NCBI GenBank assembly: GCA_036382775.1
Contig: DASVHD010000050.1
Coordinates: forward strand, 1-51,457
Reading direction: 5' to 3'
DNA from: a bacterium
GTDB lineage: Bacteria > Hydrothermota > Tepidihabitantia > SM23-42 > JAOAFX01
Length of the DNA: 51,457 bases
The translations under genes and the position numbers were made by a program. This document shows positions 5,950 to 45,800 of the stretch, piece by piece. Under the pieces are notes generated by a model. It saw only the letters and a list, made by a program, of their open reading frames with translations. It was not told the origin of the DNA and searched no databases. The first letter of the stretch is position 1. Every line of letters begins with the position of its first letter.

Positions 5950-5983
5950 TATATCTCCCTTCGGGAATTGTGTTGTAAATATC

Positions 5984-6011
5984 ATTATATGCCGAATCGG
6001 GTAATAGTCAA
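5984..6011 (-). promoter_or_regulatory. Promoter of the C25-like gene 2884-5949
   Basis: TTGACT (6006-6011), a 16-nt spacer and a perfect TATAAT (5984-5989) on the minus strand, 34 nt before the ATG at 5949, which has its own ribosome binding site. Confidence 0.75.
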
Positions 6012-12300: not shown

Positions 12301-12786
12301 GGCGATGGTAACCGCCTTTCTGAACCAGTCCGGGTCGTCCATAAAAGGTGTTTTCTCGTAACCAAGGATCTTGTTGACGATGGTCTTTACATGCACGGTG
12401 TCGAACACCCACAGCCGCGCCGGTATCAGTTCGTTGTAGAAATCCCCAACGACATTCGCATAATAATTATCGCTGTACGATAAATCGTAATTGTAAGTAA
12501 AACGCACGAATGGGATCTGCTGGGGATTGCCGACCAGCAGCAGGTATTCGGGTTTTATCTGCCAGTTATTATAGGCATTGACGATGTACGATTTTATCTG
12601 GGTTGAATCGCTGCCGGTCTCGGACAGGCGGACGATCTTTGCCTTCATGCCTTTTTGCGTTTTCCAATCGGCCAGCGGCACCAGCGCGTCATAATAACTG
12701 TCATGCGTAATGATCAGGTAACGCGCGCCGCTCTGCGCAAAAACCGATCCGAGGAACACAGCAGCGAGGATCGCGATCCTTTTCAT
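9361..12786 (-). CDS. C25 (gingipain-like) family protein with three CARDB-like modules and T9SS sorting domain
   Basis: A 1141-residue predicted secreted protein with signal peptide MKRIAILAAVFLGSVFAQ. The C25-like domain is about 20-365. CARDB-like modules lie near 463, 592 and 710 (TGGNGNYIPNNGE is the first turn), a flavodoxin/ThuA-like region at about 805-1005, and the sorting domain at 1029-1141. The Cys site is retained (ISGTCATI); the His position is Val (YRGVG). Two sorting-domain loops carry extra residues: one encoded by a folded palindromic element (9585-9640), another by tandem GGTTAAATGGTTGAAT words (about 9511-9546). A third insert near 9415-9445 adds a Gly/Ala-rich stretch before the final strand. 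No clear promoter or strong ribosome binding site is visible upstream. Confidence 0.87.
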   Translation of the reverse strand: MKRIAILAAVFLGSVFAQSGARYLIITHDSYYDALVPLADWKTQKGMKAKIVRLSETGSDSTQIKSYIVNAYNNWQIKPEYLLLVGNPQQIPFVRFTYNYDLSYSDNYYANVVGDFYNELIPARLWVFDTVHVKTIVNKILGYEKTPFMDDPDWFRKAVTIANEDDYPPYSDSTYFADADYAHRLMDNASFPHVDSFSQYAGNNNSDDVIQAWNDGRTYILYRGVGGYYWDYPFYDIYPLTDCHNGYKMPIIISGTCATIEEIGYEWMYAGTPDEPKGAVGFYGTTDMLMEAAEKRSALAKGTLRNIFCDSMATLGKAAEWGRQTYVHTFGNTQEYNSWTCLGDPEMTVWTGTPRSLDVTHWPRVWIGESLIVTVKHDYQPVESALVCIRARKDTTVYHYRRTNASGTVTFIDTLPISDTALVTVTGRNLLPQTDTVLAGYQGGPSLMYDFHLVLDTTGGNGNYIPNNGEDIELAVWMLNVGDSTAHGVTAILEKAQADPYFQIADTIKAIGDIASLDSAFTSADGFNIIIDQYCPDSHLVKLKLVMTDADSHTWISFFNVLVYSARPYLIYMSHAVLDTANGTGNGDYFVNPAEDIEMPVWIKNIGDSIAVAVTGVIQRDTIDPYYTLHDTLKGFGNILPADTAWTGADGFNVLVDSGCPDQHVIKLRCTLSDALDSTWIYDIELINHSAMLVITQHWVNDTLKYVMPRDTAPLYLELHNIGSGIADSITGTLVCADSFFHVIDGEAYFGLLPPDGIGSNHSDPFLISGDSLSPAGHAVNLKIVLESGAYRDTLDFTVYIGQRDYVVWDPDPNHTSGFVMHTKLAALGYLGDYTQGFPAGFLNIYKVFFASLGMYPNKYTISYSNPDIFEIVRHLNAGGRMYLEGGDVWYNDPLSGGYDFASQFSIDAIQGNIGYFTGLIGVSGTFTNQMSFSYTGESSSIDRIDPTGNGIAVLRNVYNSNNCGVAANHRTVGISVEFGGMVDGSPPSTKLALADSIMRYFGILPGQAVGEGLSMKDDLEFRGLRVWPNPSFGRTVIKYVVSSKPQDSVGQGFSHAKSSKPEGLPYYIKIYDAAGRLVKSFNHLTIQPFNQITWTGADENGRRVPAGVYFVRLAIGPVGATGTAGEADGEKWTEKAILLR
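9585..9640. repeat. Compound palindrome (branched fold) inside sorting-domain coding region
   Basis: Perfect 10-bp outer arms (AGTAGGGCAA / TTGCCCTACT) enclose a perfect hairpin GCAAACC-TTCA-GGTTTGC (9591-9608) and a second TTAGC-ATG-GCTAA hairpin (9614-9626). The element resembles REP-type palindromes but is translated in frame in a loop of the sorting domain. Confidence 0.75.
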
Positions 12787-12949: not shown

Positions 12950-14260
12950 CTATCTTTTCAATATGACCTTGGCGGTCACAGGTATGTCACATCCGCTCAG
13001 CTGGATGAAATAGACGCCGTCAGGTGCCGGACGACCGGCATCATCTGAACCATCCCAGATGATCTGGTTAAATGGTTGAATTCCGCCATACTGCATGGCG
13101 GATAAACGGCTAAATTGTTTTATGAACCTGCCTGCTGCATTAAAGATTTGTACTGAAATTTGTGATTTGGAATTTGTTTGGCATTTGGCACTGGGAATTT
13201 GGAATTTAACCGTAAGGCTTCTCGTAAACGGATTCGGATAAATTTCCAACTTCCCGTTTCCCGCTTCCCACTTATCTGCTTCCTCGACACCCGTTCCATC
13301 GTGCCAGGTCTCGCCGCCGTCATACGTGTAAAGAATGATGCTGGTGCCGCAGGCAAGACCATGGAGCGTGTCTGAAAAGTCGACGTCAAAAAGCGTCGAG
13401 GTCGCGGGGTTGGTCTGGAACGTCCAGGTCTGACCATCGTCGTGGGAATGGATTATCGTTCCAAACCTGCCCACTGCCCAGCCCTGCCCGCCCACGAAAT
13501 CAACTGCCCTCAGGTAGAACGCGTTGCCCGGCACCGTGATCTGGTTCCAGCTGACGCCGCCGTCCGTGCTCCTCAAAACCAGGGCAGCGTAATTTTGTTC
13601 GTTGCCGCCCGCAATAATGCCGTTCAGCGCATCGAAGAAGTGAATGTCAAAATAGTCGTCATAGTTCGTGCATAAAAAAAGGGAATCCCAGACCATCCCT
13701 CCGTCGGTTGAACGCGCGATGATCGCCTGGCCGATATCCACTGAATCAGGCCAGCCTGATACGATCCAGCCCCTCAGAGTATCAATGAACGACACTCCGT
13801 ACAGTTCTGGCAGGAAGGTGAATGGTGTGAAATTCACTTCCCAGTAGGCTCCACTGTTCGTGGTCCTCAAAATAACGCCGTCTCCGCCCACGGTCCAACC
13901 GTGATTAATATCAACGAATTCCACGCGCGTGGCGTATTTCGAACCACCTCCCCCAAGCTGGATCGCCCAGTTCTGACCGCCATCGCTGGTGTAACATATC
14001 TGCCCCAGGACACCGCATGTCCAGACGTTCTGGTTTCCAAAACAAGTGACATCGAAAAACCTGCGGTCGGCCGGGTTGGCCTGCTCGAACCAGTTCACAC
14101 CGCCGTCGGTGGTTTTCAGGATAATCATGGTATCCAGGGTCACGACCCAACCTGTTGCATTGTCCGGTGCCAGGGTGCATCCATGGAAATTTTGGTATGC
14201 GAAACTGGCCGATAAACTCAGGCACCACAGCAGTCCCATAAATATCTTTATATTCCTCAT
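12950..14260 (-). CDS. YCF48/BNR-repeat (Asp-box) beta-propeller protein with T9SS sorting domain
   Basis: 436 residues. A signal peptide (about 1-21) is followed by six or so repeats with Asp-box signatures (TTDGGVNW, TSDGGQNW, STDGGMVW, STDGGVSW), typical of YCF48-like/sialidase-type propellers, and a sorting domain from about 330 ending in KVILKR. AAAGGAG lies 6 nt before the ATG. It starts 28 nt after the stop of the C25-like gene 14289-17852, so it is probably the last gene of that operon. The sorting domain contains the palindrome at 13082-13102. Such propellers in secreted proteins usually bind ligands or act as scaffolds; no enzymatic residues can be assigned. Confidence 0.85.
   Translation of the reverse strand: MRNIKIFMGLLWCLSLSASFAYQNFHGCTLAPDNATGWVVTLDTMIILKTTDGGVNWFEQANPADRRFFDVTCFGNQNVWTCGVLGQICYTSDGGQNWAIQLGGGGSKYATRVEFVDINHGWTVGGDGVILRTTNSGAYWEVNFTPFTFLPELYGVSFIDTLRGWIVSGWPDSVDIGQAIIARSTDGGMVWDSLFLCTNYDDYFDIHFFDALNGIIAGGNEQNYAALVLRSTDGGVSWNQITVPGNAFYLRAVDFVGGQGWAVGRFGTIIHSHDDGQTWTFQTNPATSTLFDVDFSDTLHGLACGTSIILYTYDGGETWHDGTGVEEADKWEAGNGKLEIYPNPFTRSLTVKFQIPSAKCQTNSKSQISVQIFNAAGRFIKQFSRLSAMQYGGIQPFNQIIWDGSDDAGRPAPDGVYFIQLSGCDIPVTAKVILKR
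13082..13102. repeat. Small palindrome interrupting a tandem-word tract in coding sequence
   Basis: Arms TCCGCC/GGCGGA, same element as 3103-3125. It sits in the middle of the GGTTAAATGGTTGAAT word tract that is uninterrupted in the paralogous loops at 9511-9546 and 14402-14440, as expected for an insertion. The reading frame is kept and it encodes SAMQYGG. Confidence 0.75.
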
Positions 14261-14288: not shown

Positions 14289-17200
14289 TCACCTTGTTAT
14301 AATGACTTTTTCAATTACCTTGTTCTCCCCCGATTGTAGTTCAATGAAATAAACACCGGCAGGAAGACGACGGCCCGCATCATCTGAACCGAACCAGGCG
14401 ATTTGGTTAAATGGTTGAATGGTTAAATGGTTGAATTGTTTTGTTAACCTGCCAGTCGCATCGTAGATCCTTAATGAAATATTTGAATAATCCCCCCCTC
14501 TTTTATCCTCCCCCTCGAGGGGGGAGGGCAAGGGTGGGGGTGAATTTTGGAATTGGGAATTGGGAATTTGGAATTTAATTATAAGGTTGCTCCTGGCAGG
14601 ATTCGGGAATATCTGCAGGTCGAGTTTTCCGCCTATTCCCGCCAGCTTCCCAAGTTCTTCCACTCCGGGATATGGATCCGGCTGGTCCGTGGTAAATTTG
14701 ATCGCCCGGTTATTGATCAGGGCGGCCGCTCCCGCCGCGTACACATTGGCGTAAGTATACTCAAGACCTGACGTATGTCCGTAGTTCTCAATACCGCACG
14801 TGGCATAGTTATGCCAGTGGTCGTCATTGCTGATCTTCTTATACTGGTAGATTATTTCGCCGTCGCCGGTCTGGGTCGGATAATATGCCGGGTCATACAG
14901 GACGATCTCAAATGTCTGCAGTTCCGCCGGCACCGGCGAGGTCGGGTTGTGCAAATGCTGGATCCTCGACCACTCGGCAATGAAACGGTGGTTCGCGGCA
15001 TCGCTATAATAACATACGTTCCCGCTGGAATCGGTGGCATTGGGATCAAGGTCGTCCCAGAACGCAGCCATGAGCAGCGGAGGCCCCAGGCTCGAGAGGA
15101 TGTGCCAGTTGTACATATCCGCGATCCACGTCGAGTCCAGAGCGGCGTAACCATTGGAGCAGATCGAGATCTTGCTGTAATTCAACCCGTAATACTTGAA
15201 ACTGAAAGGCAGCGCGACCGTGCGCGTCTGATCGTTCGCCAGCGTCAGGACAGTGCCGGACCCGCCCAGCGCCGGATCGACCTCGACCCAGCTGTAGGCC
15301 GGCGTCTCCGTGTACCCGGCGTCGGTATTGTCATAAGCGTAATAACCATAATCGTCAGGTCCTGACGGTGATGCGGTTGTCACCACTCCGATGGTCGTTG
15401 AAAAATAAACCGTGTCCCGGAAAGATTGATCTCCTGACAACAGGACATACATATCGATTACATGCCCGGGCGCGAGCTGCGGTGAAGCGTACACCGCAAA
15501 ACGGTCGCTGGCGTTCTCCGCCGAATCACCAACTGGTATGGTGCCGAAAGCGCCCAGAGAATCATTGACCGAAACACCGGGGTTGCGCGACCTCAGGACC
15601 CCGGTAATATTGCCGCCGGCAAGTCGGCCTGAATTCACGATCCAGATACTGAGGTCGGAAGTTTCGCCAGGTTCCAGAACACCGTTCCCGCCGTCCACGA
15701 TGCGGCAACGCTGTGCCCGGAACTGGGGAGCTTTAACTTCCACCCAGATCACGGAATTCCAGCTGCCCTGGCCAGACGTGACGTTCAGGTTGAATTTTAT
15801 AATGCGACCATCCTTCGCGCCAGTCGATACCGAAAAAACATACGGTGAACCGGTCGCGGTCCCGCCCGGGCTGATCGCACCAAAGCTCTTTATCGAATCC
15901 GTTATGGTCACCAGGGGATCGCTGTCGGTCAGCTTCGCGGTCACGCCGGTAGCGGTTGTTGATGTGCCGTAATTCTTTAAGGTCACGGCCATCTGGATGG
16001 TCTCGCCTGGATTGGTCTCCCCATTGTTGTTGCCGCCGGGATCGCTTATCGTGTGGCTGAGATATCCGACATAGACGGCCGAATTATTGACCAGCAAGTA
16101 TCCGCAGTAAGGGGCGCAGTTATGCTTGGAAACAGTGACGAATAAGGTATCGGGGGTCGTGGTGGAGATCTGAAAATATGCCATACCGCCGGCATCGGTG
16201 AAATCGACGGATTTGACCTCGTTTTGCTTGTATAGGCTGACCAGCGCGTCCTTTACAGGCTGCGACGATCCGGTTTGCACCGAAACCGAGATAGCGTTCG
16301 TGCCGACCGGCACGGACGACGCGTGGCTGACGTTAATGGACCGGGGTGCCGCGGTCCACAATTCGAGGGATGGATCACCCAGCAGGTTATAGGCGTTGAA
16401 ATAATATTCCACGCCGCTGTCCGGCGACACTTCGAACGGGAAGTTGAAGTACACCTCCATTTTGCCCCGGTACGTCATTGGCCCAAAACTGTATATGCTG
16501 TCCTCGGTCAAACCCCAGTAGATCCCGTAATCCAGGCAGTTGTTCCACCGGCTATGGGTCGTTGGCGTCGTCGCGCCGAAGAAACCGACCGCGCCCTTCG
16601 GCGTTACGGGATTGCCGACGCGCAGCCAGGTCTCCGCGAAACACGCCGGGTAATTGAAATTGCAGGTATTGCAGACAATACTCGTTATTACGGGAAGTTT
16701 CCACCCGTTCGTGAGGGCTACGACGTCGGTGTTGGTAAAAGTGGGACGGTCCCATCCGTAGGGATCGGCAATACCGCCCCGGTAATTGATAATGCTGACA
16801 CCCTGGTTCACGGCATTCGTGATCGCGGCCTGGCCGTTGGAAACAGGCGGATCGTATATAGTATCCACCGGGCTGATAGAATGTTGGAGCAGTTTCTCTC
16901 TGACCCACCGCTTGGTCGGTATCGGCGTGGTCATCGTATCGTAGGGATAATTGGCAGCGACCATGAGCGCGTGCTTGAACCATGTCGTGTCGGTCGTATA
17001 GGGCGTTTTTTCGTAACCCACGATCTTGGCGACCAGGGTCTGCAATTCATTGGCATTCGACACTGATAAACGGCCGACCATTATTTCGGCAATAAAGTCG
17101 CCGCCATCGATCAGGCCGTACAGATAATCAGTGATGTTGACCGGGTTTGCCGGCATCGCGAAAGCCGGCAAGCTGTCCTTATCGCCGACGAGGATGACAT

Positions 17201-17852
17201 ACTCGGGCGCAGGATCCCAGTTGTAATATGCGTTGCTGATATAATTTTTTATGGATGTGCTGGTATTCCCGGTCTGCGCCAGCGTGGCGACCGTGGTCGT
17301 CCAGCCCTTTTTTTCTTTCCAGTCAGCCAGCGGCAAAACCGCGTTGTAGAACGATGCAGGCGTAATGATCAATAAACCCTGCGGCTCGACATGAGGGTCA
17401 TATTCATAATTCAGAATAAGATTTTTATAAACCGCTGCCTGGCTGGGCGCCAGCCGGACATTATCATAACCGCGGCATGCCAGGCGCAGCACTGCTTTTT
17501 TCAAGTTAATCTCCATCCCGCGCTCGACCACCCTGTTGCGGATAATGACCGGATATATCCGGTAGCCCGCCAGGATCATGGCATTTCCTATCTCCGCGAA
17601 CCCTCCCGGTCCAACATAGTTCTGATCCCCGGAGCTTTCGATGGCAGTCGTATCACAGGCCATGGAGACAATGGTCAAGGCCGGTTCGGTGCTCGAGAAT
17701 ATGAACCTTGTTATCGTACCCGGTCCGGTCTCGCTGCCAGGTGTCAGGCTGATTTCCAGTGACGACGAGTTTTTGGCGAGAATATCTATCTGCGGATCAA
17801 TACTTGCCGGTAGCAGCGCCGAAATGAGCACGTACGACAGAAGTACGGTCAT
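14289..17852 (-). CDS. C25 (gingipain-like) family protein with N-terminal prodomain-like region, in the pgs operon
   Basis: A 1187-residue predicted secreted protein. Its ATG overlaps the stop of the LVIVD lipoprotein gene by 4 bp (ATGA), indicating translational coupling. After the signal peptide there is an extra beta-rich region of about 130 residues resembling a gingipain-type propeptide, absent from the other paralogues here. Then come a C25-like domain (about 150-520), two CARDB-like modules (near 611 and 728), a nidogen-like beta-sandwich (about 840-1045) and a sorting domain (1085-1187). The nucleophile Cys is present (ITSIVCNTC) but the His position is Gly (YRGGI). The sorting-domain loop contains a CCTCCCC/GGGGAGG palindrome insertion that encodes a Pro-rich stretch. 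Confidence 0.87.
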   Translation of the reverse strand: MTVLLSYVLISALLPASIDPQIDILAKNSSSLEISLTPGSETGPGTITRFIFSSTEPALTIVSMACDTTAIESSGDQNYVGPGGFAEIGNAMILAGYRIYPVIIRNRVVERGMEINLKKAVLRLACRGYDNVRLAPSQAAVYKNLILNYEYDPHVEPQGLLIITPASFYNAVLPLADWKEKKGWTTTVATLAQTGNTSTSIKNYISNAYYNWDPAPEYVILVGDKDSLPAFAMPANPVNITDYLYGLIDGGDFIAEIMVGRLSVSNANELQTLVAKIVGYEKTPYTTDTTWFKHALMVAANYPYDTMTTPIPTKRWVREKLLQHSISPVDTIYDPPVSNGQAAITNAVNQGVSIINYRGGIADPYGWDRPTFTNTDVVALTNGWKLPVITSIVCNTCNFNYPACFAETWLRVGNPVTPKGAVGFFGATTPTTHSRWNNCLDYGIYWGLTEDSIYSFGPMTYRGKMEVYFNFPFEVSPDSGVEYYFNAYNLLGDPSLELWTAAPRSINVSHASSVPVGTNAISVSVQTGSSQPVKDALVSLYKQNEVKSVDFTDAGGMAYFQISTTTPDTLFVTVSKHNCAPYCGYLLVNNSAVYVGYLSHTISDPGGNNNGETNPGETIQMAVTLKNYGTSTTATGVTAKLTDSDPLVTITDSIKSFGAISPGGTATGSPYVFSVSTGAKDGRIIKFNLNVTSGQGSWNSVIWVEVKAPQFRAQRCRIVDGGNGVLEPGETSDLSIWIVNSGRLAGGNITGVLRSRNPGVSVNDSLGAFGTIPVGDSAENASDRFAVYASPQLAPGHVIDMYVLLSGDQSFRDTVYFSTTIGVVTTASPSGPDDYGYYAYDNTDAGYTETPAYSWVEVDPALGGSGTVLTLANDQTRTVALPFSFKYYGLNYSKISICSNGYAALDSTWIADMYNWHILSSLGPPLLMAAFWDDLDPNATDSSGNVCYYSDAANHRFIAEWSRIQHLHNPTSPVPAELQTFEIVLYDPAYYPTQTGDGEIIYQYKKISNDDHWHNYATCGIENYGHTSGLEYTYANVYAAGAAALINNRAIKFTTDQPDPYPGVEELGKLAGIGGKLDLQIFPNPARSNLIIKFQIPNSQFQNSPPPLPSPLEGEDKRGGDYSNISLRIYDATGRLTKQFNHLTIQPFNQIAWFGSDDAGRRLPAGVYFIELQSGENKVIEKVIITR
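14507..14577. repeat. GC-rich palindrome plus AATTGGG words in sorting-domain coding region
   Basis: CCTCCCCC-TCGA-GGGGGGAGG (14507-14527) is followed by reiterated GGAATTGGGAATTGGGAATT words to 14577. All of it is translated in frame between the KFQI strand and the ISLRIYD strand, adding about 20 residues compared with sorting domains that lack it. Confidence 0.7.
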
Positions 17853-23580: not shown

Positions 23581-25800
23581 TTACTTCAACCATACGATCT
23601 TTTTCATGGATGTTTCGCCATTGATCGCCAGCCGGCAGAAATATACGCCCGCCGGTAGTCCGCGTCCTCCGGCATCTTCACCGTTCCAGCCCGCGCTGTA
23701 CGTACCTGCCGGTTTCTTTTCATTAACCAGCTGTACGACCTCTCTACCCTGGATATCGCAGATCGAGACGATCACAAACCCGGGCTTTTCGACCGTATAG
23801 TGGATGACCGCGACGCCATGCGCCGGGTTTGGCGTGGCATCGATCTTCATCCTGGTGTATCCCGCATTGTTCTCATCGGCGCCCACCAGAAGGCTCCAAC
23901 GGTACATGCCGGCCCCCTCGGTTCCGCAGAACAGCCAGTTGCCCTGGTTTATGCCCAGCGATGTGACATAGGTATTCTGCAAACCGCTGTTAATTGCCAT
24001 CCAGCTGCCGCCACCGACCGTGCTCATGTAAACGCCGGTGTAGGTCGCAGCATAGATCTCGTTCTCGTTGGCCGGGTTGATCAGAACAGCATACACGTTC
24101 GTGCACCCGCTGTTGGTCCAGCTCGCGCCGGCATTGGTCGATTTAAAGACGCCCGAAGACGAACCCGCATAGATCGTGTTGGCCTTGGTCGAACCGATCG
24201 CAATGTCGTTCACGGTTCCGCTCAAGCCGGTGCTTGATAAAAACCATGTATTGCCGGCATCCGTGCTTTTATATAAACCGGTATAGCCACCGGCATAAAC
24301 TACGCTGGAGTTCGTGTGATCGACGCGCAGCGCATTGCATGTCCCGTAGACCGTGGTGAGTGTCTCCCTCGCCCAAGTTGTTCCACCGTCCGTGGACTTG
24401 GAAACCGCCATCAGGTAGGTGGTAGTGTAAACATATCCGCCGCTGTAAATTATGTTGTTGTTGTTGGGATCGATGACCAGCGCCCCGCCATCAGCGTAAT
24501 AACTGTCCAGAGGGCTTGACCAGACGGACCCGCCGTCTGTGCTCTTGTAGAGCTCGGCGTTGCCTCAGCCAGACCCCTCTAACGCGTAAACGATATTGGG
24601 ATTGGTATTATTCACCGCGAATTCGCAGATATTGCCGCACCCCACCGGCGTTGGTACCTGCGCCCAGTCGGTTCCGTTGTTCGTGGTTTTAAAAACACCG
24701 ATCGCTTCGAACGAAGTATACATGGTTGACGGTGACGACGGAGCGGCCGCGAAACTGCAGATAGAACCGAGATTAAGATTGTTGTTGGTATTGGACCAGC
24801 TGGTACCGCCACTGGTCGTCTTGAAAACACCGTTATTATCAGCGGCATAGACCCTCGAGCTTGATGACTGGCTCACGGCCAGGCCATAGAAGCCATACCC
24901 GGCAAGTCCTGTGTTCACTGAAAACCACGATGCGCCGGCATTGGTCGTCTTGTAGATCTCATTGTAGCCGCCAGCGAATGCCTCATCGGGAGTGGCAATA
25001 CTGGTGGCCATGGAGTAATTGTAGTAGTTGGTGCTGGTTTGGGTCCAGGAACTGCCGCCATCGGTCGATCGGTAGATACCGCTCAAATAGGTCCCGGCGT
25101 AGACAATACTGGAATTCGTCGGGTGAACCGCCAGTGAATATATATAGTATGCGCCGGACGGGATCGTCCCGGTTATGTCGGTCCAGTTCGTACCGCCGTT
25201 TGTGGTCTTAAAAACTGCCGGGTAAGTGCCGAGGCTATCGCTCCAGTATCCGCCAACATATGCCGTAAGGGGATTCAAGCGGTCAACAGCGATGCAGTTG
25301 CACTGACCTTGGACCGTATTCAGCGTGGTCGTGCTCCAGGAAACACCGCTGTCCGTGCTTTTAAAAAACGCCATTACCCATTTGGCACCATCCCAACTCA
25401 TACCTGATGCATAAACAGTAGCCGGTGTACCCGGGATGTCGATGATGCCATAGATGTACTTGTTTGACATCGACGTGGACGCCCAGTTGACACCACCATC
25501 GGTCGTTCGGTAGATCACGTGCCCGCTTCCGGCATAAAGTTTATTATTGTTCGTGGGATCGATCGCAAGACAATAGGCCTGATTGGCGATCGAACCGACC
25601 GTGGTCCAGTTGATTCCGCCGTTGGTCGATTTGGCAACATTGGTCGGGCTGTTGTTCGAGGTCACGTAGACAATGTTATCGTTAATATAAGAAACAACCG
25701 CTGACCTTGCATCACCACCGTACGGTCCCACAGCTTCCCATGCGCCGAACGCGGTCATACTGACTGTGAGGACAATTAATATCGGATATCTCATGTTCAC
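23581..25800 (-). pseudogene. BNR/Asp-box repeat surface protein, interrupted by one in-frame TGA
   Basis: One continuous reading frame of 739 sense codons apart from TGA at 24565-24567. The first part (to residue 411) has a signal peptide and many Asp-box repeats (STNGGINW, TTDGGVNW, STDGGSSW). The frame continues in the same register with GNAELYKSTDGG and further repeats, ending in a canonical FlgD-like sorting domain (LPAGVYFCRLA, IVWLK). The context GSG-stop-GNAELYKSTDGG suggests a former TGG (Trp). The upstream half alone would lack the sorting domain. Start GTG at 25800 is preferred: GGAGG lies 6 nt before it (ATG at 25794 is the alternative). It may be a true nonsense mutation, a strain variant or a sequence error. 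Function is probably a secreted propeller-type binding protein. Confidence 0.75.
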
Positions 25801-26034: not shown

Positions 26035-27222
26035 ATGATCGGCCATTTAATAAGATATACCCTGGTACCTGTTTTGCTGCTGGTGATAGCCTGTGTCCAG
26101 TATGTCCGTTACACGCCCGACCCGGTGAAAGACATTGGCCAGTGGGTGGCAAATTTCAAACAGCAGCAGTCATTTGAGTATGAATACCGCATGAAAACGA
26201 ATACCATGTTCATTCAGGCAGGCGGGTCCTGCGTGGCCGGCCGCGCCGAACGCAACAAAGTCCAATGGACATCGCAAGGTTCTCCGGCATTGACATATGA
26301 ATACGTCGGGTTGGGCGATATTGAATACCAAAAAAAGGACGGAAAGTGGGAACAATCAGCCCGCGGCGAGGAATCCAACATGTTCGCGCAGGTAACACGG
26401 ATGCTGGATTTCGATAAATTTGAGTTCATAAACGACAGCCAGCCTGGCGTATATGCCTATCGATTTAAAGCGAATGTTCCGTTCCTGGCGCCAGACAAAT
26501 GGAAACAGATGGTCGGGACCCTTTTGATCTCCAGAAAGACCTGCCTTCCGGTGTTCGTATGGGCCGGATTGCCTGATTCCTCGGTATACTGGCAGGTTTC
26601 CATTACCCGGTATAACAAGGTAAAGGATATCAATTCGCCCGTTAAAACATGGGTAGACTATGTCTTACGCAGCCGCGACAGCCTGATCGACGCTAAACAA
26701 TTGAATGGATATCTGAAAAAAAGGCTGGCTTCGCTGGGCATATCATACAAACTCAACCGGAAAGATTCTCTGTTTGTACTCACGACCCAGGCACAATATA
26801 ATCAAGGGGACGTCGATGACATGTTAGGCACGATGGCACCAGTGTCGATCTACGGGCTCGCCGAAACCCAAAATAACGCCAAGAAGGTCAGCCGATTGGC
26901 TGGAACTGACCAGCCGGTATATCTGGACGGTTTGATCGCAGACCAGTCCGGCATAAAATCGGCGCTGGTCCAGTTTGACAATATTTCACGCCCATACCTT
27001 TTGATCACGCTCAAGGACAAACGGGATATCCCGCCTCGCGTATGCCTGGAAATAAACAACTCCATCGTCAGTATCATCACCATTGACAAACCAGGGAAAT
27101 TGAGTAAACTTTATTTCTATATTACCATCATGGGATATTTTCAACTTAATATTCTTAAATCATCACTTAACCAGGGATTGCCATTGATCGAGGTGAAGGA
27201 CGTACCCAAGGGGATTGATTGA
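26035..27222 (+). CDS. Predicted lipoprotein of unknown function
   Basis: 395 residues with a lipobox (LLLVIAC, Cys20), so probably an anchored periplasmic protein. Residues about 35-190 look like an outer-membrane-lipoprotein-sorting/LolA-like or DUF beta region (EYEYRMKTNTMFIQAGGSC, a repeated aromatic pattern). The C-terminal 130 residues (VYLDGLIADQSGIKSALVQF) faintly recall a SecD head subdomain; this is weak. Its stop overlaps the next gene's TTG start by 4 bp (TTGA), so it is probably made together with the glycosyltransferase and may help polymer extrusion. Confidence 0.7.
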   Translation: MIGHLIRYTLVPVLLLVIACVQYVRYTPDPVKDIGQWVANFKQQQSFEYEYRMKTNTMFIQAGGSCVAGRAERNKVQWTSQGSPALTYEYVGLGDIEYQKKDGKWEQSARGEESNMFAQVTRMLDFDKFEFINDSQPGVYAYRFKANVPFLAPDKWKQMVGTLLISRKTCLPVFVWAGLPDSSVYWQVSITRYNKVKDINSPVKTWVDYVLRSRDSLIDAKQLNGYLKKRLASLGISYKLNRKDSLFVLTTQAQYNQGDVDDMLGTMAPVSIYGLAETQNNAKKVSRLAGTDQPVYLDGLIADQSGIKSALVQFDNISRPYLLITLKDKRDIPPRVCLEINNSIVSIITIDKPGKLSKLYFYITIMGYFQLNILKSSLNQGLPLIEVKDVPKGID

Positions 27223-28706
27223 TCGGCATAACCCTTTTTATCTATACGATAATCCTGCTGGTCCTTTTTGTCTATTCCCTGCATTCTTACATCCTTATTT
27301 TTTACTACCTTAAGTTCAAGATCCTGACAAAATGGTTTGAAAAACACTTCCCCAAGCGCTTAACGCCAGCATTCTATCCTGTGGTCACGGTCCAGCTCCC
27401 TATTTATAATGAAAAATACGTGGTCCACCGGCTGGTGGACAGCGTCATGCGCCTCGATTATCCAAAAGACAAGCTGGAAGTGCAGATTCTTGACGACTCT
27501 GACGATGAAACATCGCTGATCGCCGCCAATCTCGCCAATACTTACATCGCCAAAGGTTATGACATAAAACACATCCAGCGCGGCACGCGTCATGAGTTCA
27601 AGGCAGGAGCGCTGCATTATGGCGTAAAGAGAGCGCGCGGCGACTTTCTCGCGGTCTTTGACGCCGATTTTGTCCCGCCGGTCGGATTTTTGAAAACCCT
27701 TATCGGCGAGTTCGAGAACGACGACGTCGCGGCGGTCCAGGCGCGGTGGGGCCATCTTAATCCAAACGAGTCATCGCTTACAAGGAGCCAGGCGATCAGC
27801 CTCGACAACCATTTCGTGGTCGAGCAGGAAGTCAAATCGCGGGCGAACTTTTATATTAATTTCAACGGCACCTGCGGGATCTGGCGAAAAGCGGCGATCA
27901 TGGACGCGGGTGGCTGGCAGGGCGACACGCTTGCCGAAGACCTTGACCTGTCATATCGGGTTCAACTCAACGGCTGGCGGATCGTTTATCGAGGCGACTG
28001 CGTGGTTCCGGGAGAACTGCCGGACAGCGCCGACAGCTACCGGATCCAGCAGAACCGCTGGGCAAAAGGAACGATCCAGGTTGCGGGTAAACTATTGAGC
28101 ACGATCATGAGATCGAACCTGCGACCGGTCGCGAAGTATGAGGCTTTTGTTCACCTTACCTGCCACGTCAACTTCATCGCCATGGTCTTCATCGCCTTGT
28201 TGTCGCTCCCGCTCGTATATTTCAAGGTCGAGGAGATGGTACCGGACTCCTATTTTATCCTTGCCTCATTCTTCACGATCGGCATTTTCGGTTACCCATT
28301 CCTGTATGCCCTGTCGCAGCGCGAATCATATAAGGGTTACATGAAAAAACTGCCCTACATCGCCAGCGTCATCGCCTACAGCATGGGGCTCTCGCTATCC
28401 AACGCCAAAGCTTTATGCGAGGCGCTGTTCAAGAAAAGGAACAGTTTCACCCGCACGCCCAAGAGCGGCGGTTCCAGGCAGAATTACCGCCAGGACACGA
28501 AATTCATCATCCCGTTAATGGAGATATTGTTCGGGCTTTACATGTTCATCAGCCTGATCTATGTCACGGTGAACTTTCAACTCATCCTCATTCCTTTTTT
28601 GATGTTCTATAGTTTTGGTTTTCTCAGTCTGGGTCTTTCATCGTTTAAACAGGTCAACGTCCCGGTCAAACCCCAGGAGGCATTATGCTCAAGAGAGAAC
28701 TCCTAG
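27219..28706 (+). CDS. Processive family-2 glycosyltransferase (cellulose synthase/mannan synthase-like)
   Basis: 495 residues. An N-terminal membrane helix (about 5-30), a GT-A domain and several C-terminal helices (from about 305) resemble cellulose synthase-like/CslA enzymes. The D,D,D,QxxRW set is complete: Asp92-Asp93 (DDSDDE), DAD 148-150, AEDLD 239-243 and QQNRW 277-281. Such enzymes polymerise a beta-linked sugar and thread it across the inner membrane; the sugar cannot be told from sequence. The start is TTG, overlapping the lipoprotein stop. The gene overlaps the following Trm112-like ORF by 22 bp. No BcsB or PilZ domain is seen. Confidence 0.88.
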
Positions 28707-28891: not shown

Positions 28892-31800
28892 ATGCGGTTT
28901 TTAACCCTGATCACAATTCCTTTTTTATGCACGGCGGCCGTCATCCAAACATTTTCTGAAAACGGCCTGGAAATAACCATTAGACCGGACCTGCTCACAA
29001 AGGACGAATACCGGTTCGACGAAGCCGTCTGGCTCAGCGATTTTGGCGAGCCGGACTTGCCTTCCGTGATTCTAACGGTCGGTATTCCCCAGGGTGCGAC
29101 AGCCGATGTCCGGGTCCTGGAGAATCAGCAGTCGGTCATGGAGAACGTCATTGTCGAACCGGCGCGCCCGCTTGCCGTCTATGAAGAACCGGCGCCTAAA
29201 ACGATCAGCGTGCTGGGGCCGGTGTACCGCCGGAACGAAATATTCCCGAAAGAGGCAGTCAGCGTTTCCGCGCCATCGTACTACCGCGATCTTAACACCA
29301 TCACCATCACGGTCCATCCGGTGCGTTGCAATCCCATTAAAAAGCAGGTCTCGGTATCGAACAAGATACGCCTGTCCATTTCTTTCAAAGGAAAACCAGT
29401 GATCAGGGCCGTTCCCCCAGATCTTTTTGCGCCCGTTTACCGCACAACCGTCATCAACTATGACCAATGTAAGTCGTGGCGGCGTGAACAGGAAAGGAAT
29501 GGCGCGAACCCGTTCTCAGGCCATACCTGGTTCAAGATCGAGGTCACTGAAGAAGGTTTGTACAAAATTGGATATGATGAGCTCAGAAAAGCCGGGCTTG
29601 ATCCCAGGCAGTTTGATCCGAACACCATGAAGATCTACACCATTACCTATGATGATCTACCGGGGAACGTCCACCAGCCGTTCGCTGATTCGCTGGTCTC
29701 GGTCCCGGTATTTTTGTCAGGCGCCGATGATGGCATGTTCGACAAGGACGACTATCTGCTTTTTTATGGACTACCGGCAAGTCATTATACCACGGATTCA
29801 GCCCTGGCATGGCTGGAAAACGGTTTTACATATGCGAACGTTTACTGGTTCACGTTCGGCGGTGAAGCGGGCAAACGCATGGCCGTGACCGATGCGACCT
29901 GGGATGGCTCGGCGCCGGATTCCACGGCTAATGAGATCGTGCACCTTGAACAGGACGTCGGCAATATCCCGCGTTCCGGCACCAACTGGTACTGGAAAGA
30001 TATATCACCCGGTAGCGGACCAACCGGCGGCGCTGAGTTCAATATCCAGCATCCGCATGCGTCGGGCGCGGTGCGAGTGACCGCCGCTATCTTCCCCCTT
30101 TCATCGCCGGGTCCTTTCGGGTACGAAATGCTGCTCAATGACGAAACCATTTGCTATGATACCATCGCGGTTATAGGCCACGATCGGTGGCCGCCTACTT
30201 ACATCAGCGGGTACGGTTCGATCGATGGCGATTCGTCGCTTTTCGCTTTCAATATAATAAGGCTGTCCGGGAACACATCTAATTACAGCGTGCTTTTCAA
30301 CAGCCTGGACATCCAATACCGGCGGGTAGCGTACCTGGATTCCCCGTTCCATTCATGGCTGGCAGCGCCGGGCGCGTACACCATGAAATGCCTGGATGCT
30401 GATCCCAGGCCGTTCGTCCTGGACATCACCGATCCATTCGTACCGAAAATAGATTCGGCAACGGTTCAGGGCAGCACATTATTGCTGTCTGGAACAGCGG
30501 ATTCATTCCAGCTGCTGTATTTTTCCAAACTCTCCCTGACCAAACCGGCCGTTCTCATCGCGGCTGAACCGGGCCGGCTCAGAGAACCGGACGCGGGCGC
30601 CGAATATCTGATAATCACCCACCGCAAGTTCTACAACGCATTGATGCCCCTGGTGGAATACCATCGGCGCAAATATTCGACCAAGATCGTCATGGTGGAT
30701 GATATCTATAACGATTTCAATTACGGAAAATTCGATCCTTTTGCCATCAAGCATTTCCTCCACTACACCACGGACAACTGGACACAGTATCCGACCTACG
30801 TCCTGCTGGTCGGGGATGCGACCTACGACTACAAGAACAACCTGCAAAAGGAAAATCCACCCAATTACGTGCCGATGATCGACACGGGGACCATACTCGT
30901 GGGCAACCCCGGCATGCCGCCGAATTTTATCTACGAAGGTGAATTTGTCAATTTCGAAGGCTTTGAAGACATGATCCTCGGCCGGATCACGGTCCGGACG
31001 ACCAAGGAAGTAAGGGATTTCACCGACAAAATGATCAGCTACGAGTCCAAAGACATCGACGGCATCTGGAACAAGCGGGTCCTGTGCGCCGGTGACGATG
31101 AATGGGCCACTAACTATGGGTGGGAAGGACCCATGCACTGCCAGTGCTGCGAATCCATGTTCGTCCCGGTAGCCGAATCCATTTACAACCACGTCAAGGT
31201 TTACATGGTCAGCTATAAGCCGTTTAACTATGATGCGAATACGACAAAACCGAACGCGCAGGGTGATTTCATCAAGGAGATCAACCGGGGCGCGTTGCTT
31301 GGCGCGTACATCGGGCACGGCAACACGCATCAGCTCTCCCACCAGATCATTTTTTACCAGCAGACCGATATCCCCAAGATCAACAACGGGCGCCGCAACG
31401 GGTTGTATTATTTCGGCTCCTGCACGGTCGGTCGTTTTGACGATTCAAATTACGAGTGCATCGGCGAGGAATTCGTCCGGATACCTGACGGCGCGATCGG
31501 CACGATCGCCGCTTCCTGCGGCACCAGCAATTACGGCAACCAGGCGATCGGCATCCGCCTGTTCCAAATGGTCACCGATCCGGATACGAACTGGACCATG
31601 GGTCAGTATTTTATCGATGCGAAACGGTTCGGCGACCGTCACTACCTGCTTATCGGCGATCCCGCGACCGAACTGCGCAAGGTACAGCGCCGCATGAACC
31701 TGACCGCGACCCCGGACTCGGTGCGGCCCATGGAACTGTTGAAAGTTACGACCGGCGAACCGGCTTACTATATCTCGGCGTTCGTGCGGAACGGCGACAC

Positions 31801-32722
31801 GATCCCGTATTTTGACGAGACGACCATAAACCGGATCGCCGGGTATGTGTACCGCCTGGTCCAGAGCAGCCCCAGTACATTTGTCCCGTTTGGCTACTAT
31901 ATCGACGGCAAGGAATTTTACAAGGGCTTCTGGAACACCGATACCGCGCGGTTCCCTGCACCGCGGATCGTAACAAATGATCTCCCGGTTATCAAGCTGA
32001 GCACCTATAAAAATTTCCTGAGCGGTCATCGGGACTCGCTGCCGGTCTACGGCAGCGCCCTGCCTTCGACCGACCAGACCGGTCCGGCCGTCACGCTCTA
32101 TGACGGCGGTCGCAGGTTGAACGACGGCGACTGGGTTGACTCGGCATTCGTTCTGACCGGCACGGTCAGCGATGAAAGCGGTATCAATCTCTTGAATTCA
32201 AAGGAGGACGCCCGCGGTTTCTACCTTTACATCAACCAGGATGTCGAGGAGAAGATCGATCTGCGGAATTTCTTCCTTTACGACCAGAATTCCTACACCG
32301 AAGGCAAGTTCAGCACCAGCATCCTCCTCCCTGAATCGGTCGACACCATAACCGTCAACGTAAATGATAACAATTTCAACCAAACGACTTTGAAGGTGAT
32401 CCTTAATACCGAGCAGTTCGGCGGGATATCATTAGAGGACCTTCTCGTGTACCCGAACCCGGTCTTGGACCGTAAGGGTTTATGGTTCACGTTCCGGCTC
32501 ACCGCATCCGGCACCGTGAAGCTCCGAATCTTCAGCATCGCGGGGCGGCTGATAAAGGTCATTGATCCGCAACCCCGTGGCGCCGGGTATAATCAGATCT
32601 TCTGGGATGGTCTGGATGAATACGGTGAGGAATTGAGCAACGGGGTTTACCTCGTGCAAGTAGCGGCTGAAGCGGAAGGACATCAGGACGAAGTGACGGA
32701 AAAATTCATCATCGCGAGGTGA
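28892..32722 (+). CDS. PorU-like C25 cysteine peptidase with C-terminal sorting-type domain
   Basis: 1276 residues with a signal peptide (about 1-16). Residues about 195-330 contain the PorU-type N-terminal region (WFKIEVTEEGLYKIGYDEL) and about 565-930 the C25 domain. The catalytic dyad is intact: His809 (YIGHGN) and Cys844 (FGSCTV), 35 residues apart, close to the gingipain spacing, and the domain closes with LLIGDPATELRKV. A FlgD-like domain (about 1180-1276, LLVYPNP...NGVYLVQV) ends the protein. PorU is the sortase of type IX secretion that removes C-terminal signals and attaches cargo; such a role for the cargo-like proteins in this window is plausible but unproven. GGGGGG lies just before the ATG. 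No other T9SS component is in the window. Confidence 0.82.
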   Translation: MRFLTLITIPFLCTAAVIQTFSENGLEITIRPDLLTKDEYRFDEAVWLSDFGEPDLPSVILTVGIPQGATADVRVLENQQSVMENVIVEPARPLAVYEEPAPKTISVLGPVYRRNEIFPKEAVSVSAPSYYRDLNTITITVHPVRCNPIKKQVSVSNKIRLSISFKGKPVIRAVPPDLFAPVYRTTVINYDQCKSWRREQERNGANPFSGHTWFKIEVTEEGLYKIGYDELRKAGLDPRQFDPNTMKIYTITYDDLPGNVHQPFADSLVSVPVFLSGADDGMFDKDDYLLFYGLPASHYTTDSALAWLENGFTYANVYWFTFGGEAGKRMAVTDATWDGSAPDSTANEIVHLEQDVGNIPRSGTNWYWKDISPGSGPTGGAEFNIQHPHASGAVRVTAAIFPLSSPGPFGYEMLLNDETICYDTIAVIGHDRWPPTYISGYGSIDGDSSLFAFNIIRLSGNTSNYSVLFNSLDIQYRRVAYLDSPFHSWLAAPGAYTMKCLDADPRPFVLDITDPFVPKIDSATVQGSTLLLSGTADSFQLLYFSKLSLTKPAVLIAAEPGRLREPDAGAEYLIITHRKFYNALMPLVEYHRRKYSTKIVMVDDIYNDFNYGKFDPFAIKHFLHYTTDNWTQYPTYVLLVGDATYDYKNNLQKENPPNYVPMIDTGTILVGNPGMPPNFIYEGEFVNFEGFEDMILGRITVRTTKEVRDFTDKMISYESKDIDGIWNKRVLCAGDDEWATNYGWEGPMHCQCCESMFVPVAESIYNHVKVYMVSYKPFNYDANTTKPNAQGDFIKEINRGALLGAYIGHGNTHQLSHQIIFYQQTDIPKINNGRRNGLYYFGSCTVGRFDDSNYECIGEEFVRIPDGAIGTIAASCGTSNYGNQAIGIRLFQMVTDPDTNWTMGQYFIDAKRFGDRHYLLIGDPATELRKVQRRMNLTATPDSVRPMELLKVTTGEPAYYISAFVRNGDTIPYFDETTINRIAGYVYRLVQSSPSTFVPFGYYIDGKEFYKGFWNTDTARFPAPRIVTNDLPVIKLSTYKNFLSGHRDSLPVYGSALPSTDQTGPAVTLYDGGRRLNDGDWVDSAFVLTGTVSDESGINLLNSKEDARGFYLYINQDVEEKIDLRNFFLYDQNSYTEGKFSTSILLPESVDTITVNVNDNNFNQTTLKVILNTEQFGGISLEDLLVYPNPVLDRKGLWFTFRLTASGTVKLRIFSIAGRLIKVIDPQPRGAGYNQIFWDGLDEYGEELSNGVYLVQVAAEAEGHQDEVTEKFIIAR

Positions 32723-32762: not shown

Positions 32763-33245
32763 ATGACAGGGAGCATACTTTCCAGCATCGACACAAAATC
32801 ACAGATCGCAAAGGTCACACTGTATGGCGTTTTCGACCAGCAGGGCGTAGCCGCGCAGATCTTCAGTTCCCTGGGTCAGCAGGGGTTCAACGTTGAAGCC
32901 ATCACGACCACGCAGCGGGGCCGGAAACGCGCCGATATCTCGTTCGCGGTCCCAGAACAGGATATCCCCCGTTTAACAAGGCTGATCCATTCGATGAAAG
33001 TACGTTTTGGCGCGAGAAAGGTGAGCATTGACCGAAACCGCGCGCTCCTCATCCTTTACGGCGCGAAAGGGTTTGCCGCCCCGGGCGCAGCGGGACAGAT
33101 CTTTGCCAAGTTTTCCGAACTTGGCATAAACATTGAGATGATCAGCTCGTCATTATCCATCCTGGCGCTGGTCATCCCACGCGAAAAGGCCGGCGCTATC
33201 ACTGAAGTGCTGAAGCAGGAATTCGTCGCCGGTTCTGGAGCTTAG
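32763..33245 (+). CDS. Stand-alone tandem ACT-domain protein (aspartokinase regulatory-type)
   Basis: 160 residues comprising two ACT domains (about 15-80 and 86-155) like the regulatory end of aspartate kinase (VAAQIFSSLGQQGFNVEAI; GAAGQIFAKFSELGINIEMI). The kinase domain is absent and there is no such gene beside it. The size equals the separate beta subunits of some aspartokinases that arise by internal initiation. It may bind an amino acid and regulate an unlinked kinase. A GGGGA-type ribosome site precedes the ATG. It lies 40 nt after the PorU-like gene and faces the next gene tail to tail. Confidence 0.8.
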   Translation: MTGSILSSIDTKSQIAKVTLYGVFDQQGVAAQIFSSLGQQGFNVEAITTTQRGRKRADISFAVPEQDIPRLTRLIHSMKVRFGARKVSIDRNRALLILYGAKGFAAPGAAGQIFAKFSELGINIEMISSSLSILALVIPREKAGAITEVLKQEFVAGSGA

Positions 33246-44273: not shown

Positions 44274-45800
44274 TTACTTCAGCAATAATACCTTATCGAT
44301 GCACGTTCTGTCTGGAGTTTCAAGCCGGCAGAAATAGACACCGCCGGACATAGGCTGCCGGGTAACATAAAAAGAGCTGTAAAGCCTGCCCGTTTTATGA
44401 ACCAGACTGCCTGAAAGATCGTAGATCGAGATTATAGTACCGTGTTCAACCCCTTCAAACGTGATTTTATCCTTACATATACGAATACCGGCATTATTTG
44501 CTTTCTCTGGACCGCTGACTTTTTCTTCTTCTATCTTCCCCTGGTATACTTCGTAACACCCGATATCATATTCCGGTCCCTGTGGCCTGGAAATACCTTC
44601 GAGATCAAAAAGAACTAGCGGAAAAACTGCCGATGTGCCGGCATCCATTGCCTGGCAGAATGTTCGCAAATGGTAATCCCCTGCCGCGTAGTTCACAAAT
44701 ATACTGTCGAGCGGGTCGGCGAGCATTGAATGCAGGTCATAACCCAATGCCTGCCACTCTGCCAGCGTGATAACGGTATTGCCCCAGTCCGTGCTGAAGC
44801 GGTCGATCACGACATTATAGTCGCTACAAAATCCGGGCATGGAGGACGAATCAATCGAAATGCTGCCGCGCCAGTCATGAAGGTTTATCAGGATATTATT
44901 GTAAAGAGTATCGCCGTATGATCCGCTGTTGATATTAACACACCAGCGCGCGTTCGACGCGTTCAGAATCGTATTGTTGTAGACTTTATTGCGATACGAA
45001 CCGGCAGAACCATCGATCATGTATAGACTTATCCCCGATGCATGGTTTGAGTACAGAAGATTGTTATAGATCCTCGACTCGGCAACGCCGTCGCAGTTTA
45101 TGCCCGACCCGCCGGCCGCTCCATTTTCATAGATGATATTGCATTCCACGGTTGCATCGGTTATCAAGCCATCGCCGCCCATTGATGCATCTCCGTTCAT
45201 GTGTATGCCGTTGGCGTTATTGTGATGCGAAACATTATGGCTGATAACCGGATGGTCTGCGCTGTTCGAGAAATAAATCCCATGTTCCTGCTGCGAATAA
45301 CAGCATTCGTTGTTTTCGATCACCGCATAGTCGGCAAATCCCGTGAATATTCCCCACCGGCCATTGGTTGAGCAGTAGTTATTTCGCACGGTCACGTGCT
45401 GTGATACCGCGACGCGTATTCCCGCCCTGGTTATGCCGATGACTTCAAAACCGTCAATGACCACCCAGTCCGCGTTCTCTATGTTGATGCCATCAGGCGT
45501 GACCGGGTTTTGGTTAACAATTTGAACCGATGAACCATTAGCCTTAAAAACAATAGGTGCTAACTGCGTGCCGCCTGATCTTAGATCAAAACCCGTATAA
45601 TCACCGTTTGCCGTAAAAACCGAATCGCCCTGGTTGACTATATCTGCTGCATGCTGCAGCGTGGCGAACGCCGAATCCCATGAAAGGCCGCTCCAGCTGT
45701 CATTACCCCATGTCGCCACGTAATAATTCGTAGCCGTCGACATAAAGCACATGCCAAAAATAAAGTAGGCTATGATGATTTTCAAAAATATTTTTACCAT
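44274..45800 (-). CDS. Right-handed parallel beta-helix protein with T9SS-like sorting domain
   Basis: 508 residues. Signal peptide about 1-24, then a short region typical of this class (YYVATWGNDSWSG) and a long series of beta-helix turns (about 110-330) rich in the pattern VIENNECCYSQQEHGIYFSN, NVSHHNNANGIHMNGD and RIYNNLLYSNHASGISL. It resembles pectate-lyase-superfamily/NosD-type surface proteins. The C-terminus (about 430-508, GGVYFCRLE ... KVLLLK) is a short sorting domain without the insertions seen in the C25-like proteins. AGGAGG lies 6 nt before the ATG. It is 29 nt after the HEAT-repeat gene, so probably co-transcribed. No catalytic residues can be assigned. Confidence 0.85.
   Translation of the reverse strand: MVKIFLKIIIAYFIFGMCFMSTATNYYVATWGNDSWSGLSWDSAFATLQHAADIVNQGDSVFTANGDYTGFDLRSGGTQLAPIVFKANGSSVQIVNQNPVTPDGINIENADWVVIDGFEVIGITRAGIRVAVSQHVTVRNNYCSTNGRWGIFTGFADYAVIENNECCYSQQEHGIYFSNSADHPVISHNVSHHNNANGIHMNGDASMGGDGLITDATVECNIIYENGAAGGSGINCDGVAESRIYNNLLYSNHASGISLYMIDGSAGSYRNKVYNNTILNASNARWCVNINSGSYGDTLYNNILINLHDWRGSISIDSSSMPGFCSDYNVVIDRFSTDWGNTVITLAEWQALGYDLHSMLADPLDSIFVNYAAGDYHLRTFCQAMDAGTSAVFPLVLFDLEGISRPQGPEYDIGCYEVYQGKIEEEKVSGPEKANNAGIRICKDKITFEGVEHGTIISIYDLSGSLVHKTGRLYSSFYVTRQPMSGGVYFCRLETPDRTCIDKVLLLK

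What the first reader, a model, noticed from the sequence alone, without database searches (positions are those of the whole stretch)
28892..32722. Dyad-intact PorU-like sortase that itself carries a sorting-type C-terminus
Seen: His809 and Cys844 are intact and a FlgD-like domain follows. It is the only C25 protein here with the complete dyad, near many sorting-domain cargo genes. Known: PorU is the T9SS sortase and carries a T9SS-type signal. Inference: it may process the C-terminal signals of the neighbours. No other T9SS gene is in the window, so the whole system remains to be shown.
Basis: partly seen in the sequence, partly recalled or inferred. Interest (0 to 1): 0.52.

Follow-up and report, generated by a model that had tools for sequence, protein, structure and literature searches.

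The report
PorU sortase without known T9SS motor
The gene is a genuine relative of PorU, the enzyme that trims and anchors proteins secreted by the type IX system; its host phylum (WOR-3/Stahlbacteria) carries the export pore, carrier, sortase and many cargo tails, but the motor and ring parts we looked for were not found, so what powers export there is an open question.

Summary
Window 28892-32722 encodes a 1276-aa C25 protein with His809 and Cys844 intact, the only one of six C25 proteins in the window with both. It passes the curated PorU model (435.7 bits, cut-off 420), has full-length PorU (6za2) as Foldseek's best match, a C-terminal domain matching the PorZ signal domain (Z 11.6), and groups with Bacteroidota PorU apart from 17 genome paralogues. 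The organism is a WOR-3/Stahlbacteria relative. Its genome has SprA, PorV homologues and at least 150 sorting-tail matches. So the sortase idea is largely right. Unexpected: GldM and GldN were found in 9 of 9 Bacteroidota controls but 0 of 66 WOR-3 genomes, and GldL passed its cut-off in 0 of 133: translocon, carrier and sortase without the known motor and ring. It differs from Bacteroidota PorU by a gingipain-type propeptide and Cys876 at the proposed sortase-Arg position. In passing: a C25 family with in-frame UGA at the catalytic Cys in 4 of 4 orthologues, with selA/selB/tRNA-Sec: a probable selenocysteine protease.

The parts
28892..32722 (+). PorU-type C25 peptidase/sortase, 1276 aa
   Evidence: ORF; NF033707 435.7 bits over cut-off 420, residues 210-1274 on model 4-1094; PDB 6za2 PorU best by sequence and by Foldseek
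29015..29470 (+). gingipain-type N-terminal propeptide (aa 42-193)
   Evidence: Propeptide_C25 81.5 bits; RgpB pro-domain 4ief_A E 2.6e-7; not found in 3 of 3 Bacteroidota PorU scanned
30605..31675 (+). C25 catalytic domain (aa 572-928)
   Evidence: PF01364 217.1 bits
31316..31318 (+). catalytic His809
31421..31423 (+). catalytic Cys844
31517..31519 (+). Cys876 at the position of the proposed sortase Arg (Arg722 of P. gingivalis PorU, also 32 residues after the catalytic Cys)
   Evidence: alignment column; Arg722 from PMC4560394 passages
32423..32719 (+). C-terminal T9SS-type signal domain (aa 1178-1276), FlgD-like
   Evidence: TIGR04183 over cut-off; fold matches PorZ CTD 5m11, Z 11.6, 89 residues, rmsd 2.3
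26035..27222 (+). uncharacterised 395-aa protein with lipobox-like N-terminus, conserved upstream neighbour
   Evidence: in 22 of 26 PorU loci compared; no Pfam, NCBIfam or PDB match
27219..28706 (+). processive GT2 glycosyltransferase (CelA/PgaC-like), conserved upstream neighbour
   Evidence: in 18 of 26 loci
32763..33245 (+). ACT-domain protein, conserved downstream neighbour, probably unrelated to secretion
   Evidence: in 16 of 26 loci
14289..17852 (-). C25 paralogue with sorting tail, His lost (Gly), Cys kept
9361..12786 (-). C25 paralogue with sorting tail, His lost (Val), Cys kept
6059..9052 (-). C25 paralogue with sorting tail, His lost (Ser), Cys kept
2884..5985 (-). C25 paralogue with sorting tail, His lost (Gln), Cys kept
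1..2694 (-). C25 paralogue cut by the contig end, His lost (Asn), Cys kept
23581..24411 (-). beta-propeller-type protein with sorting tail (candidate cargo)
12950..14260 (-). YCF48/BNR-type protein with sorting tail (candidate cargo)
44274..45800 (-). 508-aa protein with a weak sorting tail (candidate cargo)
   Evidence: TIGR04183 25.0 bits

Best explanation
It is the WOR-3/Stahlbacteria orthologue of PorU, the surface C25 peptidase that removes the C-terminal signal domain from proteins exported through the SprA translocon. Proposed working: Sec export, passage through SprA using its own C-terminal domain, possibly held latent by the gingipain-type propeptide, then Cys844/His809 cleave the tails of cargo delivered by PorV-type carriers; the acyl-enzyme is resolved by water or by an amine-bearing surface glycan, perhaps one made with the adjacent GT2 enzyme. 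Shown here: orthology, dyad, architecture, partners and the failure to find GldL/M/N. Inferred: localisation, cleavage, anchoring and latency. The system it serves is T9SS-like but lacks the known motor and ring proteins, so its energy source is unknown.
For: PorU equivalog model over cut-off and covered end to end. Foldseek's best match is full-length PorU 6za2 (E 6e-53; gingipains 9e-18 or weaker) on a model with pLDDT 88.8, pTM 0.81. CTD matches the PorZ CTD. Tree: target in the WOR-3 PorU group, inside a PorU group with Bacteroidota and other FCB PorU (SH-aLRT 95), apart from 17 own paralogues (98). Dyad invariant in 16 of 16. Partners: SprA in the own genome 308.5 bits, in 132 of 133 phylum genomes; 12 PorV-family ORFs, 9 over cut-off; all 150 scored tail matches over cut-off, of 207 candidates. 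PorU-model matches in 133 of 133 phylum genomes, over cut-off in 55.
Against: The model margin is small (435.7 against 420; Bacteroidota PorU score 1144-1266), and only 55 of 133 phylum genomes have a match over cut-off, so some of the rest could be other C25 domains. The proposed sortase Arg is absent (Cys876; Arg in 11, Lys in 4, neither in 10 of 25 WOR-3 rows). VIA-align ranks gingipains (Z 35-38, catalytic domain) above PorU (Z 25.6, rmsd 14.1, domains differently arranged). Other dyad-intact C25 proteins are in the genome. GldL/M/N not found. No experiment.
Confidence: 0.75

Rival explanations
1. CTD peptidase only: orthologous to PorU but a hydrolase that releases cargo into the medium and attaches nothing.
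For: Proposed sortase Arg replaced by Cys876 and by Gly, Lys or Ala in close relatives; no anchor-glycan pathway was identified.
Against: The Arg role is itself a proposal (PMC4560394, passages); a processive GT2 gene is a conserved neighbour.
Confidence: 0.35
2. A secreted gingipain-like digestive or maturation protease that is itself T9SS cargo, not the sortase.
For: Gingipain-type propeptide; high catalytic-domain match to gingipains.
Against: PorU model covered over full length; tree apart from own paralogues and with Bacteroidota PorU; conserved gene neighbourhood in 22 of 26 loci. True gingipain sequences were not in the tree.
Confidence: 0.12
3. The secretion system is a complete T9SS whose GldL, GldM and GldN have diverged beyond the family models.
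For: Models come from Bacteroidota; even SprA scores only 308.5 bits here. Weak GldL-model matches exist in 12 of 133 genomes.
Against: The weak matches are partial, mostly C-terminal, none over cut-off, most in far longer or unlike frames. The three models find all three genes in controls. SprA neighbours in 20 genomes show no motor-like gene by eye, though not searched by profile.
Confidence: 0.4

Closest known systems
PorU of Porphyromonas gingivalis (PG0026; PDB 6za2) and Bacteroidota PorU (NF033707)
   Same: C25 His/Cys dyad, architecture along the whole PorU model, own C-terminal signal domain, co-occurrence with SprA, PorV and tail-bearing cargo.
   Different: About 200 extra N-terminal residues holding a gingipain-type propeptide; Cys876 instead of the proposed sortase Arg; 20-22% identity to Bacteroidota PorU in alignment.
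Canonical type IX secretion system (Bacteroidota)
   Same: SprA translocon, PorV-family carriers, PorU, type A sorting tails.
   Different: GldL, GldM and GldN not found in WOR-3; the same for GldM and GldN in 5 of 5 Latescibacterota, Gemmatimonadota and KSB1 genomes tried.
Gingipains RgpB and Kgp
   Same: Catalytic-domain fold (Z 35-38) and propeptide type.
   Different: Target continues through PorU-specific N-terminal and C-terminal regions and a PorU-type context.

Membership tests
PorU (T9SS sortase family, NF033707) | C25 domain with His/Cys dyad | tested here: met
PorU (T9SS sortase family, NF033707) | score over the curated equivalog cut-off, over the whole model | tested here: met
   435.7 against 420, model 4-1094 of 1095; narrow margin
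PorU (T9SS sortase family, NF033707) | own T9SS-type C-terminal domain | tested here: met
   TIGR04183 over cut-off, PorZ CTD fold; Pfam PF18962 below cut-off
PorU (T9SS sortase family, NF033707) | groups with Bacteroidota PorU rather than other C25 | tested here: met
   quick tree, SH-aLRT 95; gingipains not included, root at midpoint
PorU as transpeptidase (sortase activity) | conserved Arg 32 residues after the catalytic Cys (proposed in PMC4560394, not established as essential) | tested here: not met
   Cys876 in the target; lowers the transpeptidase claim, not orthology
PorU as transpeptidase (sortase activity) | cleaves CTD and joins cargo to a glycan | not testable with these tools
   needs biochemistry
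Canonical T9SS | SprA/Sov translocon | tested here: met
   own genome 308.5 bits; 132 of 133 phylum genomes match, 123 over cut-off
Canonical T9SS | PorV-family carrier | tested here: met
   12 ORFs, 9 over cut-off; which is PorV proper is unknown
Canonical T9SS | CTD-bearing cargo | tested here: met
   150 of 150 scored matches over cut-off, 207 candidates; the model also rings over cut-off in 1 of 14 control genomes
Canonical T9SS | GldL/PorL | tested here: not met
   0 of 133 over cut-off; model finds GldL beside a control gldM, 256.5 bits
Canonical T9SS | GldM/PorM | tested here: not met
   own genome none at E<=1; 0 of 66 WOR-3, 9 of 9 Bacteroidota
Canonical T9SS | GldN/PorN | tested here: not met
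   0 of 66 WOR-3, 9 of 9 Bacteroidota
Canonical T9SS | GldK/PorK, PorW/SprE, PorT, PorZ, PorX/Y | not tested

The most novel reading that the evidence does not exclude
WOR-3 bacteria (and perhaps Latescibacterota, Gemmatimonadota and KSB1) export very many proteins through a SprA-PorV-PorU system that has no GldLM motor and no GldN ring, either because another energiser pulls the carrier-cargo complex from the pore, or because sortase cleavage and carrier exchange suffice. The motor would then be a Bacteroidota-side addition to an older translocon-carrier-sortase core.
Probability: 0.45. Interest if true: 0.78.

Novelty: new variant of a known kind. Interest (0 to 1): 0.6.

Why it matters
In Flavobacterium, losing the motor traps cargo on the translocon, from which the authors deduce that release is the energy-requiring step (PMC10994853, abstract and passages). 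A phylum that keeps translocon, carriers, sortase and a large tail-bearing cargo set without a detectable motor would make the need for that motor, and the order in which the machine was assembled, directly testable. It also puts PorU outside the phyla named as possible T9SS carriers in PMC11285876 (passages), which do not include WOR-3. None of my listings described a WOR-3 T9SS, or one without a motor; I read listings and the starts of abstracts there, and passages only of the papers cited, in open-access PMC text only.

Tried and rejected
Weak GldL-model matches (12 of 133, E 2e-5 to 0.0095) were not accepted: none over cut-off, partial, mostly in unlike frames. A motor candidate beside SprA was sought in 20 genomes: the only frequent neighbours are a ComEA-like helix-hairpin-helix protein (11 of 20), DXS and an isoprenyl synthase (7 of 20 each), and an M28-type peptidase (4 of 20); these names are my reading of the sequences, from no family search. 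A first dyad table was discarded because loci from minus-strand matches are not turned; one search replaces it. The promoter and terminator scan and a tRNA scan of the window gave nothing I use. Separase and CHAT matches are taken as shared clan fold only. The C25 tree used 55 of the 100 extracted domains, chosen by hand for spread; the in-frame-TGA paralogue (L012) was left out, and two of its long branches met. For the SECIS-like hairpin, a per-position control was weak: 52 of 463, 28 of 467, 62 of 502 and 22 of 460 other positions of the same genes score as well.
Full report
What is there. The frame 28892-32722 (+) encodes 1276 aa. His809 and Cys844 are present. Pfam gives Propeptide_C25 (aa 42-193), Peptidase_C25 (572-928) and FlgD_ig (1205-1261). 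NCBIfam gives T9SS sortase PorU over its cut-off (435.7 against 420), covering model 4-1094 of 1095, and the type A sorting tail over cut-off. Of the six C25 proteins in the window this alone has both dyad residues; the other five keep the Cys but have G, Q, N, S or V for the His. In the genome, 8 of 19 C25 matches have both.

Who it is. Three of those Cytophagales proteins score 1144-1266 bits as PorU. A 55-row C25 tree puts the target with WOR-3 PorU, in a group with Bacteroidota and other FCB PorU (SH-aLRT 95), apart from 17 paralogues of the same genome (98). It is a quick tree without gingipains, so it separates the target from its own paralogues better than from gingipains.

Structure. 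Residues 208-1276 were predicted with 32 sequences: pLDDT 88.8, pTM 0.81. Foldseek's best chains are PorU 6za2 (E 6e-53, 1218 alignment columns) before gingipains (9e-18). VIA-align, which favours one rigid domain, puts gingipains first (Z 35-38) and PorU at 25.6 over 769 residues with rmsd 14.1. The C-terminal domain matches the CTD of PorZ (Z 11.6, 89 residues, rmsd 2.3, 22% identity). In P. gingivalis PorU sits on the surface with an intact CTD (PMC5121618, passages).

The partners. The own genome (95.6% complete) has SprA, 308.5 bits; 132 of 133 phylum genomes match SprA, 123 over cut-off. It has 12 PorV-family frames, 9 over cut-off. The sorting-tail model gave 150 matches scored, all over cut-off, of 207 candidates, so 150 is a floor set by the tool. 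The PorU model matches in 133 of 133 phylum genomes, over cut-off in 55.

What was not found. GldM: none in the own genome even at E<=1; 0 of 66 WOR-3 and 0 of 5 other FCB genomes, against 9 of 9 Bacteroidota. GldN: the same counts. GldL: 0 of 133 over cut-off, while the model gives 256.5 bits to the gene next to a control gldM. The 66 were chosen from the 133 for completeness (most 95% or more) because 80 handles is the limit. Single-contig genomes (G076, G077) are among the 66. Incompleteness of one assembly is therefore not the reason; divergence beyond the models remains possible.

How it may work. In P. gingivalis, mature cargo is joined through a peptide bond to a linker after CTD removal, and PG0026 (PorU) is the proposed sortase (PMC4560394, abstract and passages). 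By orthology the WOR-3 enzyme should cut CTDs of cargo brought by PorV-type carriers. Two differences matter. It keeps a gingipain-type propeptide, absent by Pfam from 3 of 3 Bacteroidota PorU scanned, which suggests zymogen control. And the conserved Arg that PMC4560394 proposes as a sortase feature (Arg722, 32 residues after the Cys) is Cys876 here; it is Arg in 11, Lys in 4 and neither in 10 of 25 WOR-3 rows, and Arg in all 7 Bacteroidota and other FCB rows. Cleavage is thus likelier than transpeptidation. A lipobox-bearing protein (22 of 26 loci) and a processive GT2 (18 of 26) sit just upstream; a glycan for anchoring is a guess from neighbourhood.

The open question. In Flavobacterium, cargo accumulates on the translocon when the motor is removed (PMC10994853). 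TXSScan found T9SS only in Bacteroidetes with a ten-component model (PMC4793230, passages); [quoted passage not shown] A translocon-carrier-sortase set with at least 150 tail matches and no detectable motor is therefore either a motorless system, one with another motor, or one with a motor the models cannot see. My data do not choose among these.

Found in passing. One C25 paralogue on another contig (G000:C37:26135-27577) has a single in-frame TGA at the catalytic-Cys column. Its three close orthologues in the phylum (44-48% identity) each also have exactly one, and all four align at the same residue. The own genome has selA (537 bits), selB (360 bits) and tRNA-Sec with anticodon UCA, close together on contig C48. 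A hairpin with an AGUU loop starts 24 bases after the UGA; loop, G position and spacing fit the published bacterial SECIS model (PMC13188914, passages), though not all four reach its -7.5 kcal/mol limit on my simple score (-6.4, -10.1, -6.6, -8.6). Against synonymous recodings the joint score was reached 0 of 2000 times, but the four are related and the per-position control is weak. G107 showed no strong tRNA-Sec (best 46.7 bits). A 2026 review of prokaryotic selenoproteins contains none of the words protease, peptidase, proteinase or gingipain in its main text, and a 2008 study reports predicted Sec at a conserved Cys of trypsin-like proteins, with a suggested redox role. I read this as a probable selenocysteine-containing C25 peptidase; it deserves its own study.

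Noticed in passing
G000:C37:26135-27577 (-) = L143:1501-2943(-), outside the window; orthologues L144, L145, L146: C25 peptidase family with exactly one in-frame TGA at the catalytic-Cys column in 4 of 4 orthologues; selA, selB and tRNA-Sec in the own genome; SECIS-like hairpin. Probable selenocysteine nucleophile in a gingipain-family enzyme.
   Followed up: yes
L106, L107, L108, L110, L112: PorU-type proteins of Latescibacterota and Gemmatimonadota have Ser in place of the catalytic Cys, His kept, in 5 of 5.
   Followed up: partly
window 1-2694, 2884-5985, 6059-9052, 9361-12786, 14289-17852 (-): Five clustered C25 paralogues keep the Cys but have lost the His; four more of the same kind lie elsewhere in the genome. 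Inactive binding proteins or altered chemistry are both possible.
   Followed up: partly
window 26035-28706: A lipobox-type protein of no known family and a CelA/PgaC-like glycosyltransferase stay next to PorU in 22 and 18 of 26 loci.
   Followed up: partly
window 31340-31342 (His817): A second His eight residues after the catalytic His is invariant in 16 of 16 WOR-3 PorU rows; in the three Bacteroidota rows that position is not His.
   Followed up: no
L165-L184: SprA stands without other T9SS genes beside it; its commonest neighbour is a small ComEA-like protein, 11 of 20 loci.
   Followed up: partly
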